NCBI RefSeq assembly: GCF_023704175.1
Contig: NZ_CP084530.1
Coordinates: forward strand, 794,501-858,500
Origin: Paenibacillus sp. YPG26
GTDB lineage: Bacteria > Bacillota > Bacilli > Paenibacillales > Paenibacillaceae
Direction: 5' to 3'
DNA length: 64,000 nt
Shown here piece after piece: positions 14,201-19,458 of this stretch (positions within the stretch are counted from its first letter, which is position 1; every line of letters starts with the position of its first letter). The position numbers and the translations under genes are program-made. The notes under the pieces are model-generated. The model did not search any database, had not been told where the DNA came from, and saw nothing but the letters and a program-made list of their open reading frames with translations.

Positions 14201-14587
14201 ATTCCTCTTACTGCTCTTGATTATGAGAGCTTGGAGGCAATCTTCACAGGGGAGCTTGGCACAGCAGAAGATTATCAGCGAGAATTCCAGGATACGCCGT
14301 TCGGTTTGCTTGTACGCAAAATTGCCAAGCTGGAATACGAAGCCGCGATGGTTGCATTCTCTGAATTTATCAACGATCAGTCGCTCAGCCAGTCCCAAAT
14401 CGTCTTTGTGAAGAAGGTTATTGATTATATCGTGCAGAACGGCTATATCGATAATGTATCTGAATTGATCAAGCCGCCATTTGACAAGCCTCAGAGCTTT
14501 GTTAAGTTGTTCGATGGGACGAAACAAAGAAGGCTTGTGGAGATGGTTACGCAGATTAAGGAGAATGCGGTTAGGGTGTTAGGGTAG
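11240..14587 (+). CDS. hsdR: Type I restriction-modification system, endonuclease/translocase subunit HsdR
   Basis: 1115 residues from ATG 11240, 6 bases after GAGGTGA; the in-frame GTG at 11231 overlaps that site. Domains in order: a DUF4145-like N-terminal domain (about 20-110), a coiled-coil stretch (about 150-185), the nuclease domain with ADYVLYGKDG and LAIIEAKRT (PD-ExK, EAK near 255), then a superfamily 2 helicase with MATGTGKT (about 368), VVDEAHRS (about 468), GLTATPK (about 492), and the C-terminal motor half with DMLDTGIDVPDI and MIGRGTRL. This layout fits the EcoEI/EcoAI-like branch. It cleaves unmodified DNA after translocation. No lesion was seen. Confidence 0.96.
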   Translation: MTANFEFLQGQSEYALFANACIEAERVLATAPAMAAVGSRKAFELSVKWVYAADNTITMPYKNNLQSLIHEPTFKFAMENQTWGKLPYIIKLGNLAVHTDKAISRSDAVLSIAALFEFVQWIDYCYGTNYEERHFAEANIPAEKVILDEAKIKEKDSLIEQKDSEIEALRAKIAAMSDRLTAEKTQHQEERHFTPEDISEFRTRKKYIDVDLKLLGWTFGDDVREEVELYGMPNPEGKGYADYVLYGKDGLPLAIIEAKRTSKDPKVGSHQAKLYADCLERMTGRRPMMFTTNGFETNLWDDVTSPQRGVSGIFSKADLEKLMNRRNERKALDEVVIDDNITDRYYQKEAIRAVCDNITTGHRRSLLVMATGTGKTRTASSLTDVLSRGGYVTNTLFLADRTALVKQAKDDFKNYLPDMSLCNLLSNKDDKTGRIVFSTYPTMLNAIDQAKSDDGKRLFTPAHFDLIVVDEAHRSIFKKYRTIFEYFDGIIVGLTATPKTEVDRNTYDFFEMESGVPTYAYPYETAVEIDKVLVPYHNIEITTKFLEQGITYDDLSSEDKARYEEDFTDEDGAMPDFIPSPAVNEFIFNQATVDGVLEDLMTKGIKVAGGDRLGKTIIFAQNKKHAQYIVERFNKLYPQYKGSFAKRIISEDSYAQSIIDDFKVAGKVPHIAVSVDMLDTGIDVPDIVNLVFFKRIRSKTKFWQMIGRGTRLSKNLFGEGEDKTGFVIFDYLGNFEFFRQHKEGLPGNEAQSLSEAIFAKRVRLIHHMQQSAFIDEPYQMIRTEMNETVVQQIKALNTELVSVKMQLKYIEKYIHTSAFICLSDEDKHNLIKYLAPIVYMDDTDEHAKRFDNFMYGLMIAQIEGSAQFNKGRKQLIDVTTKLLQRATMPQIKEKVAFISTIGTDEFWKNSDVLNFEKVRTELRGLVKLIVDVGERSPIYTNLADEVLTVNEGKAMYQAYEFEDYKLKVNRYIEKNRDSLVIHKLRNNIPLTALDYESLEAIFTGELGTAEDYQREFQDTPFGLLVRKIAKLEYEAAMVAFSEFINDQSLSQSQIVFVKKVIDYIVQNGYIDNVSELIKPPFDKPQSFVKLFDGTKQRRLVEMVTQIKENAVRVLG

Positions 14588-14630
14588 GGTTTTTATATTC
14601 TTGGCAATCAAGCCGAACATAGTGAATAAG

Positions 14631-14668
14631 GATAGCCTGGCAGCCATAAATTAGGTAGCCAGGCTATT
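14631..14668 (+). terminator. Hairpin after hsdR, weak terminator
   Basis: ATAGCCTGGC pairs with GCCAGGCTAT across about 17 bases. There is no good T run on the plus strand, so termination efficiency is uncertain. It separates hsdR from the converging HEPN gene. Confidence 0.5.
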
Positions 14669-14728
14669 CGTATGTCTTTATAACGGCTGTTAGATTGTTA
14701 AAGACACCTCGTTTTATAAATTTGTTAA

Positions 14729-15190
14729 TTAGATAACAATGCAATTGAAGCATATTTTTTCTACAGCGCTAACTACTTTTTCATAGTGTATTTTTAAAGC
14801 AGTTAAAGTTAATCCGACATCTTTCCCATGAGCAATAATATGCCTGTTGGCGACAATTGTGTTAATTGCATCTCTTTCTTCTTCTGAAGTACAGGTTATA
14901 AATGTCTTTTTCCATTCTTCATTGAAAGAACTTAACAAGTTACTAATTTTGTTTGTGTTTAAATTAGTAACCCGTTGTATATTGGTATTAATATACTGTG
15001 AAATATTGGGATGTGATTTATCTTGAACATACTCAGTAATACTTATCCGAAGAGAATTTTCAATGAAACCTGAAATCAATACACAAAGGTATTTAGCCCA
15101 ATGTGCATGTATTTCCTCATCTTCTATGTCCCTAATTAATAAAAATAGATTATCAATCTTTTGTTTTTGGATACTCATAGCGGTATTCAT
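14729..15190 (-). CDS. HEPN-domain protein, RiboL-PSP / MAE_28990-like
   Basis: 153 residues, all helical. The conserved HEPN motif R-x4-H is present as NRHIIAHG, Arg116 and His121, preceded by a helix with YLCVLISGFIENSLRISI, as in the RiboL-PSP/MAE_28990 HEPN-like nuclease families. Intact HEPN proteins of this kind are RNases in many defense and toxin systems. The ATG has AAAGAGG 7 bases before it and lies 2 bases after the stop of the DUF262 gene, so the two are translationally coupled. Because the DUF262 frame is broken upstream, coupling is presumably lost and expression may fall. AT-rich relative to neighbours, consistent with transfer. Confidence 0.78.
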   Translation of the reverse strand: MNTAMSIQKQKIDNLFLLIRDIEDEEIHAHWAKYLCVLISGFIENSLRISITEYVQDKSHPNISQYINTNIQRVTNLNTNKISNLLSSFNEEWKKTFITCTSEEERDAINTIVANRHIIAHGKDVGLTLTALKIHYEKVVSAVEKICFNCIVI

Positions 15191-15192
15191 CT

Positions 15193-16270
15193 TTAAACCT
15201 CTTTAAAGTATTCATATGACATTCTAAGCCTTTTTTCTACTGTTGCCTCATCTGAAGTTCCTGCTTTACAAGTGCTAACAAATTCTTCATCTTTCAATAA
15301 ACTTTCATAAGCAAGGACATATCCAACGGTATTTTCTATTTTTCCTAACTCTAACCGTTTTGCAGTAGCAACCATTACTGCATCAAAAAGAGCGGCTACA
15401 ATAACTTGATTTAATCGAAAGGCACTTTTCCCTAGAGTAGTTGCTATAAATTTAATAGTTGGCTCAAAGGCTTGCTTAATGCTCTCTGAACTGTTAACAG
15501 TTCAGAGAGCGATTTTTAGCCATGTACTTGTTTAAGAATTCTTTAAGAGGCTTTTTATAATTATCTAAGTCAAAATATAAAGCTATAATACGCAAAATGA
15601 GTTCTTGATCCTTTAGCCTATTACTTGGGTTGCCGTAAAGATTAAGCCAATCTACATTATTTCTTAATTCCTCAAGAAGTTCATTAAATACTCCATGATA
15701 TATACATGCCCTAATCTCCTGTGAATGTAATGGTGTTCCTCCAGTATTAAGTCTTTCGAATATATGATAAATGCTACTCTCATCATCAGAGGGTTCATCT
15801 TGTTTGATTACAGTAGCATGAATTATAGAATCATCCAGTCTTATTTTGTCCTCAGGATTTAATGTTTTATATGTTTTACCCTCTAGGGAAGGCTGAACTC
15901 CTTTTAAAGTGAATTCTTTGTCTCCGCTAAATTTGCCAGAGTAGAACATTTGCAAAGATTTGAGCCTTTGTTGTCCATCAATTACGAGTAATTTTTGTGA
16001 CTCGGACTCTTTGGAGAAAAAGACACCTGGTACAGGGAGCCCTAATAGCAATGATTCAATAAATCTAGATGCCTGAGTTAATGTCCAGACATAGCTCCTT
16101 TGAAAATTTGGAATAAACACTGCATTTGATTCAATGCGTTTTACCAAACTATCAACAGGGTAGTCAGCCCCATAACTTGTAATTGAATATTTATACTCTA
16201 AAGCTTCATCAACTGATTCATCTATAATCATTTCTGCTTCATTAATAATAAACTCTATTTGATCGGACAT
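15193..16270 (-). pseudogene. DUF262 (GmrSD N-terminal/ParB-like) gene broken by a frameshift
   Basis: The first 258 codons give a good DUF262 protein. VFIPNFQRSYVWTLTQASRF at about 51-70 and LLVIDGQQRLKSL (DGQQR motif) at about 94-106 are the family signatures; DUF262 domains occur in GmrSD, SspE and other modification-sensing systems. Reading stops at TAA 15494-15496 inside a perfect palindrome. The other frame continues directly with SSESIKQAFEPTIKFIATTL and GKSAFRLNQVIVAALFDAVM, ending YEYFKEV at 15195. Removing one base of the central AA (15496/15497) would restore a single 358-residue frame. It could be a real mutation, a sequencing error or a reversible switch. The HEPN gene follows 2 bases later. 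Confidence 0.85.
15481..15510. repeat. Perfect 30-bp palindrome at the DUF262 frameshift
   Basis: Arms GCTCTCTGAACTG and CAGTTCAGAGAGC are perfectly complementary around a central TTAA. It lies wholly inside coding DNA, exactly where the DUF262 reading frame shifts by one base, and its centre supplies the stop codon. Confidence 0.95.
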
Positions 16271-16553
16271 CTTCTAGCCCCTTTGCCTTTTTGTAAGTAT
16301 GCCCTGCTCTGGGCTTATAAGGAAATTATACTACTATAAAGATTAATTGTAATAAAATTTTTATTCTATTATAGAAAAATAGCGACTCAAGATGTTATTT
16401 TAGTTTTGAAAGTTTTCTACTTTTTAAGTAGAGAGCTTCTAGGTGTAAGTTAAGCTTTGCCCATATGTAGCATTTTCTTTATAAAACCGATAAACATAGA
16501 ATAGAGGACTTAATATTATTAATCCCAATCTTATTCCTTAGGAGCCCTACATA

Positions 16554-17237
16554 ATGATAAAGAAACTACTAGCCATGTTTAAGTCAAGTAATACACCTAA
16601 TAAGCAAGCACCTCAGAAGAAAACCACCCCGCGCAAAAAGATTGAGCCAACTCGTATAGGCGAGCTAGGTGAGCACAAGATTAATATCCAATTGGATCAA
16701 CTACCCAAGGAATGCAAATATTTAAGTGATTTATTAATTACTAATCCTAAATCGCGTTCTGGTTATTCCCAGATTGATCATCTTATTGTTTCTCCTTATG
16801 CTCTGTTCGTTATTGAAACAAAGAACTACAATGGGGAGATAAAAGGTAAGAAAACCGAGAAGTACTGGAGCGTTAGTAACCGATTCAAAATGTATAATCC
16901 CTTCATGCAAAATTATGGACATATTAAAGCCATTGAAGCTCAGATAGGCGAGTTTAAGAACTTAAGATATATCTCTATGATTTCTTTTACCATGAGATGT
17001 AGATTTAGTGTTGATCCTGAGCTTAGAAAAATTAACTCTGATGAATTAATTGTTTATGATGTTGAACTATCTGAATTTATTCAGAGGAAAATTACTAGAA
17101 TAAAGGCAGAGCAGCCCGCTAATTTTTTGACAGATACTGGGATTGTCCAGATCTATGAGAAGCTTAAAAAAGCTAATATTACAGATCCAAAAGTCAGAGC
17201 CGAACACATTGAAAAAGCAAAAAAGCCTAAAGCTTAA
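16554..17237 (+). CDS. NERD-domain protein (nuclease-related)
   Basis: 227 residues. After a basic linker (about 12-36, NTPNKQAPQKKTTPRKK) comes a NERD domain: RIGELGEHKINIQL, then YSQIDHLIVSPYALFVIETKNYNGEIKG, with the Q-I-D-H and E-T-K residues of the restriction-endonuclease-like core, then NPFMQNYGHIKAIE. The D and E-x-K residues match a PD-(D/E)xK active site, so DNA cleavage is plausible. The ATG at 16554 has only a GGAG at 16541-16544 ahead of it. It ends 16 bases before the McrB-like gene in the same direction, so a functional link is inferred. Very AT-rich. Confidence 0.85.
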   Translation: MIKKLLAMFKSSNTPNKQAPQKKTTPRKKIEPTRIGELGEHKINIQLDQLPKECKYLSDLLITNPKSRSGYSQIDHLIVSPYALFVIETKNYNGEIKGKKTEKYWSVSNRFKMYNPFMQNYGHIKAIEAQIGEFKNLRYISMISFTMRCRFSVDPELRKINSDELIVYDVELSEFIQRKITRIKAEQPANFLTDTGIVQIYEKLKKANITDPKVRAEHIEKAKKPKA

Positions 17238-17253
17238 TCCGGAGGACGCACCA

Positions 17254-19458
17254 ATGTTACCAAACGAACTTTCAACAATATTCCGAAACAAACAAAAGTC
17301 TTACAAAATGGTACTGATTCTCTCCCTGATCGACGAATATGAAGAGAGTCATAATCTAACCTTCCCGCTGAGCAAGATTGCTGAGCGGTTTTTAGCTTAT
17401 TATCGACATAGCAGCAGTGAAGGAATGAAAGTCGATGGACCGCCTAAATCTGAGGCTGCCAACTGGAATAGCTACACGTTAAGCCAGACTAAGTCGTTAC
17501 TTAGAACACCGATAGATGCATTAGCATCCATACTGGAATTTAACAATGAACAACAAATCATCTCGTTCAAGCCGTCCGTAATAAGTCTGTTAAATGACGC
17601 CGTAATACGTGAACTAAGGGAATATGCTCTCACCGAATTGGACAGCTACAATAACCAGTTAGCCTCTAAAGAGGGGGGATCTAATTTCTCTCTTCAGGAT
17701 ACTTTAACTGAAATCTTAAATAGTTACCTGGAAGCTAAAACCCAGTCTTTTGCAGCTCATTCCATGGGCGGTTTATTTAGACAATCTATACCGGAACAAA
17801 TAAGGAAGCTACCCTTTATTGATGATAACTACAAGATCCAAGGCTCTATTGGTCAGGGTAACTGGGCCAACATTCCTTGGATAGCCATTATGGATAAGCG
17901 GGTTACTGAGACTACTCAGCACGGGGAATATATCGTGTATTTGTTTTCCGAGGATATGCAATCGGTCTACCTAACCTTGCTTCAGGGAGTTACCCTTCCT
18001 CTAAGAGAACGCGGCAAAAAAGATGGCTATCTATATCTTGAGCAAAAGGTCAACGAGATGCGGGAACTGCTGCCACTCGAGAACATGCACAAGGATGATC
18101 ACATTCATCTGACAACAAGTGGCCTGGGGCGGGATTATCAGGTATCCACGGTGGCTTATGTACGTTATGACCGAGATCATATCCCTGACGATGAGCATTT
18201 ATTGGCAGATCTTGAGAATGTGATAGACAATTATAAGATTTATGTTAACAACGTGCTCGAGAAGGCTACATCTGAACCTGAGGAGAAGGAACAAGTGGAT
18301 TCATTTACCATTGCTCAGCGAATTGAACATATCAAGGCCTATATACAACAGAAAGGGTTTCACTATCCGGATGGGTTAATTGAGAACCTATATTTATCCT
18401 TGAAGACCAAGCCTTTTGTTATACTGGCTGGTGTCTCCGGCACAGGGAAAACGAAGCTAGTTAAGCTGTTTGCCGAAGCACTTGGTGCAAAGGGAGATAA
18501 CCATTAGTTCACATTGATTCCAGTAAGACCGGATTGGAGTGACCCCTCAGATCTACTCGGATACAAGGATCTCTCAGGAGCCTATCGTCCAGGACGTTTG
18601 TCAGAAGTATTGGTTGAAGCCTCTGATCCGGCTAATCAGCACAAGCCTTATTTTATATGTCTCGATGAAATGAATCTGGCGCGAGTTGAGTACTATTTTA
18701 GCGATGTTCTTAGCATTATTGAGACCCAGGAGTGGCAGGATGAACGGATTATCACTTCAAGTCTCATTAACAAGGATTCTCTAAGACTGGAGGATCAACT
18801 AACTTATGGAGATCTGCATCTACCGGATAACGTGTACTTAATTGGTACGGTTAATATGGATGAGACTACCCATCCTTTTAGTAAAAAGGTATTGGACCGT
18901 GCGAACACCATTGAATTTAATTACATTAATCTGGAGCAATATCCTACTTATACACAGCTTGCTAACGAAGAAGTTTTAAAGGTCAATAATTCTTTCTTGC
19001 GAAGTGAATATCTGCAATTGGTAGACGTGTATCGGGACTATCAGGATTTGATTCATAAGACAACAGAGAAGTTGGTTAAAATTAATAATATCTTGGAGGA
19101 AATTCACTCCCACGTTGGTTTCCGGATCAGAGACTCGATTTGTTTCTATATGGTATACAATCAACGGTTCAAGCTGCGGACAGATGATGAGGCATTTGAT
19201 ACACAGCTTCTACAGAAAATACTACCTCGTGTGCAGGGCAGTAGCTCATCAGTCAAGCGAGTGTTGCTTCAATTAATGCAAGGTGCTTTAGGTAAGTCTC
19301 TGTCTGTTACTGAGCTTATGGAGGATGCCTCTGAGCTGTATCTTCGATGGAATTCCATGGGAGAGGCAGATGCGAAGCACCCCCAAAGTGCTAGGAAAAT
19401 TGCCTTCATGTTACGGAGGTTAGAAGAAGATGGCTTTACCTCATACTGGCTCTCTTAG
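17254..19458 (+). pseudogene. McrB-like AAA+ NTPase with MrcB_N domain, interrupted by an in-frame amber stop
   Basis: The uninterrupted length would be 734 residues. The N-terminal part includes an MrcB_N (DUF3578) domain around GSIGQGNWANIPWIAIMDKR and EYIVYLFSEDMQSVYLTLLQ. The AAA+ domain starts with Walker A GVSGTGKTKL near 393-402. TAG at 18505-18507 (codon 418) follows, and the same frame continues at once with FTLIPVRPDWSDPSDLLGYK, then Walker B YFICLDEMNLARVEYYF and the sensor GTVNMDETTHPFSKKVLDRA. One substitution (for example TAG from CAG) explains it. The ATG has CCGGAGG 8 bases upstream. It overlaps the DUF2357 gene by 29 bases. As written, the 417-residue product lacks Walker B. 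Confidence 0.88.

What the first reader, a model, noticed from the sequence alone, without database searches (positions are those of the whole stretch)
15193..16270. DUF262 gene frameshifted exactly at a perfect 30-bp palindrome
The DUF262 frame stops at TAA in the centre of a palindrome whose 13-bp arms are perfect. Downstream the correct protein continues in another frame (SSESIKQAFEP...). Deleting one base of the central AA (15496/15497, minus strand TT) joins the halves into an unbroken 358-residue reading frame, in which the two arms would surround an odd centre. Hence a one-base event simultaneously perfects the palindrome and breaks the gene. This fits template-switch 'quasi-palindrome correction', or a reversible +1/-1 switch, or a sequencing error in a hairpin.
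Basis: partly seen in the sequence, partly recalled or inferred. Interest (0 to 1): 0.8.

Follow-up and report, generated by a model that had tools for sequence, protein, structure and literature searches.

The report
Phage-defence gene broken at perfect palindrome
A bacterial phage-defence gene is knocked out of frame exactly at a perfect 30-base palindrome, most likely the footprint of a known kind of DNA-copying slip (template switching); the example is neat, but the mechanism is already known.

Summary
A perfect 30-bp palindrome (15481-15510; arms 15 bp, not the 13 stated) lies where the minus-strand DUF262 frame stops, and the protein continues in another frame. On an alignment of 115 full-length relatives the two pieces are one column apart, where the window has four bases: a net +1 inside the palindrome. 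The gene is the first of a PD-T4-2/NsnA-like DUF262+HEPN defence operon; the break removes the last five helices.

Coincidence is unlikely: the best arm in 300 randomised versions of the gene is 11, and in half of this Paenibacillus-like genome only 1 of 79 comparable inverted repeats lies well inside a predicted gene. That one shows an in-frame pattern suggestive of template switching.

Best explanation: a template-switch (quasi-palindrome) mutation that made a recent pseudogene in a decaying defence island. No close-relative DNA and no reads were available, so the ancestral sequence, and an artefact, stay open. Read on the plus strand, the palindrome also looks like an intrinsic terminator facing the hsd operon. 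No evidence supports a reversible switch.

The parts
15481..15510 (.). perfect 30-bp palindrome, 15-bp arms, no spacer; site of the net +1 frameshift; read on the + strand it is terminator-like (tail ATTTTTAGCC)
   Evidence: alignment of the two pieces to 115 relatives; predicted 13-bp RNA stem with 4-nt loop on the gene strand; terminator scan
15494..16270 (-). 5' piece of the broken DUF262 (GmrSD_N) gene, 258 aa, holding the conserved IDGQQR motif; ends at TAA 15494-15496
   Evidence: PF03235; NsnA E 2.2e-60; PD-T4-2_A E 2.3e-50
15193..15492 (-). 3' piece of the same gene in another frame, 99 codons and stop, C-terminal helical domain; first ATG/GTG/TTG is its 40th codon
   Evidence: (NsnA positions 275-382, PD-T4-2_A 269-362)
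14729..15190 (-). HEPN (RiboL-PSP-HEPN, PF18735) gene, 153 aa, R-x4-H motif intact (RHIIAH, by eye), ATG 2 nt after the DUF262 stop, own AGAGG upstream (by eye)

Best explanation
The locus is a PD-T4-2/NsnA-like DUF262+HEPN defence operon whose first gene was inactivated by one replication error. While copying this stretch, the polymerase folded the new strand back and used one arm of an imperfect inverted repeat as template for the other, then returned. This made the arms perfectly complementary and left a net +1 base, so translation stops at the palindrome axis and the C-terminal helical domain is lost. Shown: palindrome, net +1 against relatives, operon structure, rarity of such palindromes in predicted genes of this genome; the loss of the last five helices rests on a model of the closest relative. 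Inferred: the template switch itself, the nature of the ancestral arms, and that the operon no longer works.
For: Palindrome and frameshift coincide within 30 bp of a 1,078-bp gene. Chance arms of 15 are about 4e-6 per gene, and 300 randomised versions never exceeded 11. Of 97 inverted repeats with arm >=12 in 2.0 Mb, two pass a mechanical 'frame stops inside, other frame open beyond' screen; homology on both sides was tested, and found, only for the focal one. Relatives lack the repeat here (longest arm 6 in the 21 of 37 loci that cover it). The one other deep coding palindrome (arm >=13), in an amidoligase gene at G000:1910503-1910532, is in frame and aligns without gaps to a sister genome; its right arm codes G-M-T-T-L against G-L-T-T-L in the sister, while its left arm carries C and H where its four closest relatives have R, R, Q, E and Q, Q, Q, Q. 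That is what arm overwriting would give. Quasi-palindrome mutation is established in E. coli (PMC7202029, abstract and passages seen). The 3' piece is still free of stops and keeps 12 of 15 highly conserved columns, so the break, if real, is recent.
Against: No DNA relative closer than about 57-63% protein identity was available, so the ancestral arms are unknown. Residue fit does not say which arm was rewritten: family log-odds for the left-arm residues are -0.6, +2.8, +1.3, +0.8 and for the right-arm residues +2.8, -1.2, +2.2, -1.8. A pre-existing 14-bp inverted repeat plus a simple +1 slip would give the same sequence. Most perfect inverted repeats in this genome (51 of 79) lie outside long open frames, where terminators are expected, and this one too scores as terminator-like on the + strand, so selection as a terminator is a competing reason for perfect arms. 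The amidoligase case is one example in a variable segment. No reads were inspected.
Confidence: 0.55

Rival explanations
1. Sequencing or assembly artefact: the true sequence differs in length at the hairpin and the gene is intact.
For: A strong hairpin lies exactly at the error site (MFE -30.4 kcal/mol over 110 nt, z -4.7). 104 of 106 highly conserved N-part columns and 12 of 15 C-part columns are kept, as in an intact gene. A net difference of one base is the whole break.
Against: The genome is one contig of 3,966,665 bases, 99.5% complete. 0 of 87 conserved genes tested against one relative and 0 of 37 against another were frameshifted, so indel errors are not frequent, though one is not excluded. 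The rare palindrome itself would still need a cause. The adjacent McrB-like gene also has a nonsense codon, fitting real decay.
Confidence: 0.21
2. Two-step history: a near-perfect inverted repeat was already present in the working gene, and an ordinary +1 slip at its hairpin tip broke the frame.
For: The form one base shorter would already be a perfect 14-bp-arm repeat. Family residues Y (18 of 115) and N (6 of 115) occur at the single column between the pieces, so the observed bases are compatible with a one-base change there.
Against: A 14-bp coding inverted repeat is itself very unlikely by chance (about 3e-5 per gene for loop <=1) and rare in predicted genes of this genome. It therefore still needs a cause, for which template switching is the obvious one.
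Confidence: 0.11
3. The palindrome is a working intrinsic terminator for + strand transcription coming from the hsd operon (hsdR ends at 14587); it was selected as such and broke the DUF262 gene on the other strand as a side effect.
For: On the + strand the stem (14 pairs, loop 4) is followed by ATTTTTAGCC; the scan of 14500-16500 lists it as one of two terminator-like sites (1.0 expected, sd 1.2) and none in the 141-bp gap between hsdR and the HEPN gene. 51 of 79 inverted repeats in the half genome lie outside long stop-to-stop frames, where terminators are expected.
Against: The site is almost 900 bp beyond hsdR, inside another gene. The T run is the complement of the family's conserved K-N codons and is also present in relatives L032 and L034 that lack the repeat, so it was inherited, not added. 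A terminator does not need a spacer-less perfect palindrome.
Confidence: 0.05
4. Reversible on/off switch: +1/-1 changes at the palindrome phase-vary the defence operon.
For: A hairpin at a frameshift site could mutate at raised frequency. The HEPN gene downstream is intact with its own AGAGG site, so the operon could be kept for reuse.
Against: No repeat is conserved at this site in relatives (21 of 37 loci cover it, longest arm 6). No second state was seen, but no reads or second strain were available. A perfect palindrome is the end product of quasi-palindrome correction, with no further mismatch to correct back. C-part identity is slightly below the family trend at N identity 0.65-0.70 (0.37, n=61, against 0.42, sd 0.05) and on it for the two closest relatives (0.56 against 0.53).
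Confidence: 0.04
5. Programmed ribosomal frameshifting or a functional short form: the hairpin directs ribosomes into the second frame, or the 258-aa protein works alone.
For: A strong hairpin lies in the mRNA over the stop codon. The nucleotide-binding DUF262 part is complete (PF03235 at residues 41-191).
Against: 115 of 119 listed relatives are single proteins of 340-380 aa; the other four were dropped before alignment (407, 293, 270 and 282 aa), and none of the three short ones ends at the window's break. The stem covers the stop codon itself rather than lying downstream of a slippery site.
Confidence: 0.03

Closest known systems
Quasi-palindrome-associated template-switch mutation (E. coli thyA and lacZ QP reporters; PMC7202029, abstract and passages seen)
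   Same: Perfect inverted repeat at the site of a frameshift, arms fully complementary, as expected after correction of an imperfect repeat
   Different: Here the ancestral imperfect repeat and the event itself are inferred, not observed; natural gene in a Paenibacillus-like genome
Template-switch multinucleotide mutations in coding DNA of yeast (PMC8604942, abstract and outline seen)
   Same: Arm homogenisation of short inverted repeats inside coding genes; the amidoligase palindrome in this genome resembles it
   Different: The focal event changes length and breaks the gene
PD-T4-2 (DUF262 + HEPN PF18735) anti-phage system (PMC10952713 and PMC9519451, passages seen); PADLOC NsnA and PD-T4-2_A models
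   Same: DUF262 gene directly followed by a RiboL-PSP-HEPN gene; both PADLOC models match both pieces of the broken gene
   Different: The DUF262 gene is frameshifted; no defence activity is known for this copy
GmrSD / BrxU / SspE type IV restriction (DUF262 + DUF1524)
   Same: DUF262 domain with IDGQQR; BrxU (7p9k) is the best sequence and fold hit
   Different: No DUF1524 match in the two pieces; a separate HEPN gene instead

Membership tests
PD-T4-2 / NsnA-like DUF262+HEPN defence operon | DUF262 (GmrSD_N) protein with (I/V)DGQQR motif | tested here: met
   PF03235 E 2.7e-32; VIDGQQR in the translation; PD-T4-2_A E 2.3e-50 and NsnA E 2.2e-60
PD-T4-2 / NsnA-like DUF262+HEPN defence operon | adjacent HEPN gene (PF18735) | tested here: met
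   PF18735 E 1.6e-14, ATG 2 nt after the DUF262 stop; a next ORF with R-x4-H (by eye, no Pfam run) in 5 of 6 relatives L031-L036, none found for L032; annotated HEPN next door in 2 of 2 plasmid hits viewed, of 777 records with a match
PD-T4-2 / NsnA-like DUF262+HEPN defence operon | both genes intact | tested here: not met
   DUF262 frame stops at 15494-15496 and continues in another frame
PD-T4-2 / NsnA-like DUF262+HEPN defence operon | protects against phage | not testable with these tools
   needs a bench assay
Quasi-palindrome template-switch mutation | product is a (more) perfect inverted repeat | tested here: met
Quasi-palindrome template-switch mutation | sequence change lies inside the repeat and alters it relative to relatives | tested here: met
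   net +1 within 15481-15510 against 115 of 115 aligned relatives, by protein alignment
Quasi-palindrome template-switch mutation | ancestor carried an imperfect inverted repeat at the same place | tested here: inconclusive
   21 of 37 loci cover the place, longest arm 6, but the nearest is only about 57-63% identical in protein
Quasi-palindrome template-switch mutation | one arm rewritten from the other | tested here: inconclusive
   residue log-odds do not separate the arms
Intrinsic terminator (+ strand) | stem-loop followed by a T run | tested here: met
   14 pairs, loop 4, tail ATTTTTAGCC; not met on the gene strand, where ATTAAGC follows
Intrinsic terminator (+ strand) | ends a transcript | not testable with these tools
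   needs RNA 3'-end mapping
Phase-variable switch | two length states in one population or strain set | not testable with these tools
   no reads and no second strain; 0 of 39 other genomes of the genus have a DNA match to the locus
Phase-variable switch | conserved repeat at the switching site in relatives | tested here: not met
   21 of 37 loci cover the place, longest arm 6

The most novel reading that the evidence does not exclude
The palindrome is a frameshift hot spot that lets the bacterium switch a costly DUF262+HEPN defence operon off, and rarely on again, by template-switch mutation: a form of phase variation of phage immunity that needs no simple-sequence repeat.
Probability: 0.04. 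Interest if true: 0.75.

Novelty: new member of a known kind. Interest (0 to 1): 0.3.

Why it matters
If confirmed by reads, it is a clean natural example of a template switch that both makes a perfect palindrome and kills a gene; the cases I saw in print here are reporter assays in E. coli and phylogenetic cases in yeast. With the in-frame palindrome in the amidoligase gene of the same genome, it suggests that perfect inverted repeats inside genes can serve as a search handle for template-switch mutations in bacterial genomes, some of them hidden among annotated pseudogenes. It also marks this defence island as probably decaying, with two interrupted genes side by side.

Tried and rejected
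Insertion of a hairpin element: rejected, because relatives have the same length around the site apart from one base, and the palindrome occurs once in the genome.

Transcription terminator of the DUF262 operon itself: rejected, because no T run follows on the gene strand. For this reason the confidence of the best explanation was lowered from 0.58 to 0.55 and three other rivals by 0.01 each.

Conserved hairpin or programmed frameshift: disfavoured, because relatives show no repeat there.

Close DNA relatives: 0 of 39 other genomes of the genus match the locus as DNA. In viral contigs 2 stretches matched a pattern but none encodes a relative. In 295 genomes of the family, 26 besides the own one match, the best at 38% identity; in 398 of the phylum one besides the own passes E 1e-40. 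So no close DNA relative could be aligned.

Frameshift control: the first version needed E 1e-20 for every piece and could miss short second pieces. It was repeated with E 1e-3 for the second piece: against G120, 89 eligible genes at >=40% identity, 2 dropped for coverage, 0 of 87 in two frames; against G238, 41 eligible, 4 dropped, 0 of 37. In one search, 7 of the 87 showed a stop within the best aligned piece; the translations of two were read, with stops in the outer parts of the aligned piece, and the other five were not examined.

Full report
Observation. The plus strand reads GCTCTCTGAACTGTTAACAGTTCAGAGAGC at 15481-15510, a perfect spacer-less palindrome with 15-bp arms. It is the only copy in the window allowing three mismatches and, allowing three mismatches in its central 28 bases, in the 3,966,665-base single-contig genome. 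The minus-strand ORF 15494-16270 ends at TAA 15494-15496, on the axis of the palindrome. The frame SSESIKQAFEP... then runs open to 15193.

What the gene is. The 258-aa piece matches PF03235 GmrSD_N (E 2.7e-32) and the PADLOC models NsnA (E 2.2e-60) and PD-T4-2_A (E 2.3e-50). The 3' piece matches the C-terminal parts of the same two models (E 2.9e-8 and 3e-5). Two bases after the DUF262 stop lies a 153-aa HEPN gene (PF18735, E 1.6e-14) with an R-x4-H motif and an AGAGG upstream (both by eye). PMC10952713 lists PD-T4-2 under both DUF262 and PF18735 (passages seen), and PMC9519451 reports that deleting PD-T4-2 raises T4 plaquing on its native E. coli strain (passage seen). The same gene order occurs in relatives: a next ORF with R-x4-H (by eye) in 5 of 6 loci L031-L036 (none found for L032), and an annotated HEPN gene in 2 of 2 plasmid hits viewed. 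The piece is therefore one half of a PD-T4-2/NsnA-like operon. The island also holds a type I restriction system and a NERD/McrB-like system. GC at 15-17 kb is 33-34% against 49% for the half genome fetched, which suggests horizontal acquisition.

How it is broken. A protein search listed 120 of 7,891 matches. Leaving out the window's own entry and four of unusual length (407, 293, 270 and 282 aa), 115 full-length relatives were aligned, and the two pieces were placed on that alignment separately. The 5' piece ends at column 309 and the 3' piece starts at column 311. All 115 relatives have a residue in the single column between (Q 47, H 20, Y 18, I 12, N 6, others). The window has four bases there, so the net change is +1 and it lies inside the palindrome. 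A model of the closest relative P0002 (80% identical to the 5' piece), on an alignment of 41 of the 119 relatives, has mean pLDDT 86.7. The break falls in the loop 252-259 between two helices, and the lost part holds the last five helices. Foldseek's best solved match is BrxU (7p9k, E 2.6e-4, TM 0.26). The 3' piece has no ATG, GTG or TTG before its 40th codon, so independent translation of it is unlikely.

More than chance. Expected spacer-less arms of 15 or more in this gene are 4e-6; 300 Markov versions of the gene gave best arms of 5-11. In 2.0 Mb of this genome (half of it; 25,000 positions read N) there are 79 perfect inverted repeats with arm >=13 and loop <=8. Three lie inside one of 1,354 predicted genes, and one is at least 50 bp from both gene ends. 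The focal gene was not in the predicted set, so genes of foreign composition are undercounted. Of 97 repeats with arm >=12, two passed a mechanical screen for a frame ending inside the repeat with another frame open beyond it: the focal one and one at G000:1040983 for which no homology was tested.

Mechanism. A palindrome and a frameshift at the same 30 bp point to a common cause. Quasi-palindrome template switching makes imperfect inverted repeats perfect and can shift the frame (PMC7202029, abstract and passages). What needs explaining is the arms. A template switch that rewrote one arm and changed its length explains arms and frameshift together. The other deep coding palindrome (arm >=13) in this genome supports such a process. 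It lies in an amidoligase gene (PF14395) at G000:1910503-1910532 and aligns without gaps to the sister genome G238. Its right arm differs by one residue (G-M-T-T-L against G-L-T-T-L), while its left arm carries C and H where the four closest relatives have R, R, Q, E and Q, Q, Q, Q. That segment is variable across the family, so this is suggestive only.

Against, and open. No relative closer than 57-63% in protein was available as DNA, no other genome of the genus matches the locus as DNA (0 of 39), and residue scores do not say which arm was rewritten. A sequencing error at a hairpin is possible. Indirect controls (0 of 87 and 0 of 37 conserved genes frameshifted) argue against many indel errors but not against one. 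On the + strand the palindrome, with its tail ATTTTTAGCC, is terminator-like and stands almost 900 bp beyond the hsdR stop. The T run is the complement of conserved K-N codons, also present in relatives without the repeat (L032, L034), so I take it as inherited; but a working antisense terminator is not excluded. Decay of the 3' piece is slight: its identity to the family is 0.37 (n=61) where family pairs of similar N-part identity (0.65-0.70) show 0.42 (sd 0.05), but 0.56 against 0.53 for the two closest, and it keeps 12 of 15 highly conserved columns. The break is therefore recent or unreal. The adjacent McrB-like gene has an in-frame TAG at 18505-18507, its two halves matching consecutive parts of one PADLOC model, PDC-M26A (positions 274-359 and 362-435), which fits real decay of the island.

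Novelty. Template switching at quasi-palindromes is known. Searches for DUF262 with frameshift (4 papers) and for three or more of perfect palindrome, frameshift, template switching and bacterial genome (10 of 37 listed) showed no title or abstract opening describing this case; the papers were not read in full. The finding is a new member of a known kind, of modest interest. The switch reading is not excluded but has no support.

Noticed in passing
window 17143-19458, in-frame TAG at 18505-18507: The McrB-like gene beside the operon is interrupted by an in-frame amber codon; both halves match consecutive parts of PADLOC PDC-M26A.
   Followed up: partly
window 15480-15520, + strand: The palindrome with its T-rich tail is terminator-like on the strand opposite to the broken gene, and no terminator-like site was found in the short gap between hsdR and the HEPN gene.
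   Followed up: partly
G000:C1:1910503-1910532 (L137:10503-10532): A second perfect 30-bp palindrome lies in frame inside a PF14395 amidoligase gene; one arm looks rewritten relative to sister species.
   Followed up: partly
P0056: A metagenomic DUF262 relative (270 aa) loses family similarity about seven columns upstream of the window's break; recurrent frameshift site or contig error, not resolved.
   Followed up: no
L003, L005, L008, L009, L010, L012, L014: Other DUF262 genes of the same bacterial family are followed by ~350-aa ATPase-like ORFs (Walker-A-like motif, by eye) instead of HEPN, a different DUF262 pairing.
   Followed up: no
G000:C1:1308081-1308129 and 1568285-1568329: Very long perfect inverted repeats (arms 24 and 22, one-base loop) outside the stop-to-stop ORFs of 150 or more codons; probably terminators or other elements, not examined.
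   Followed up: no
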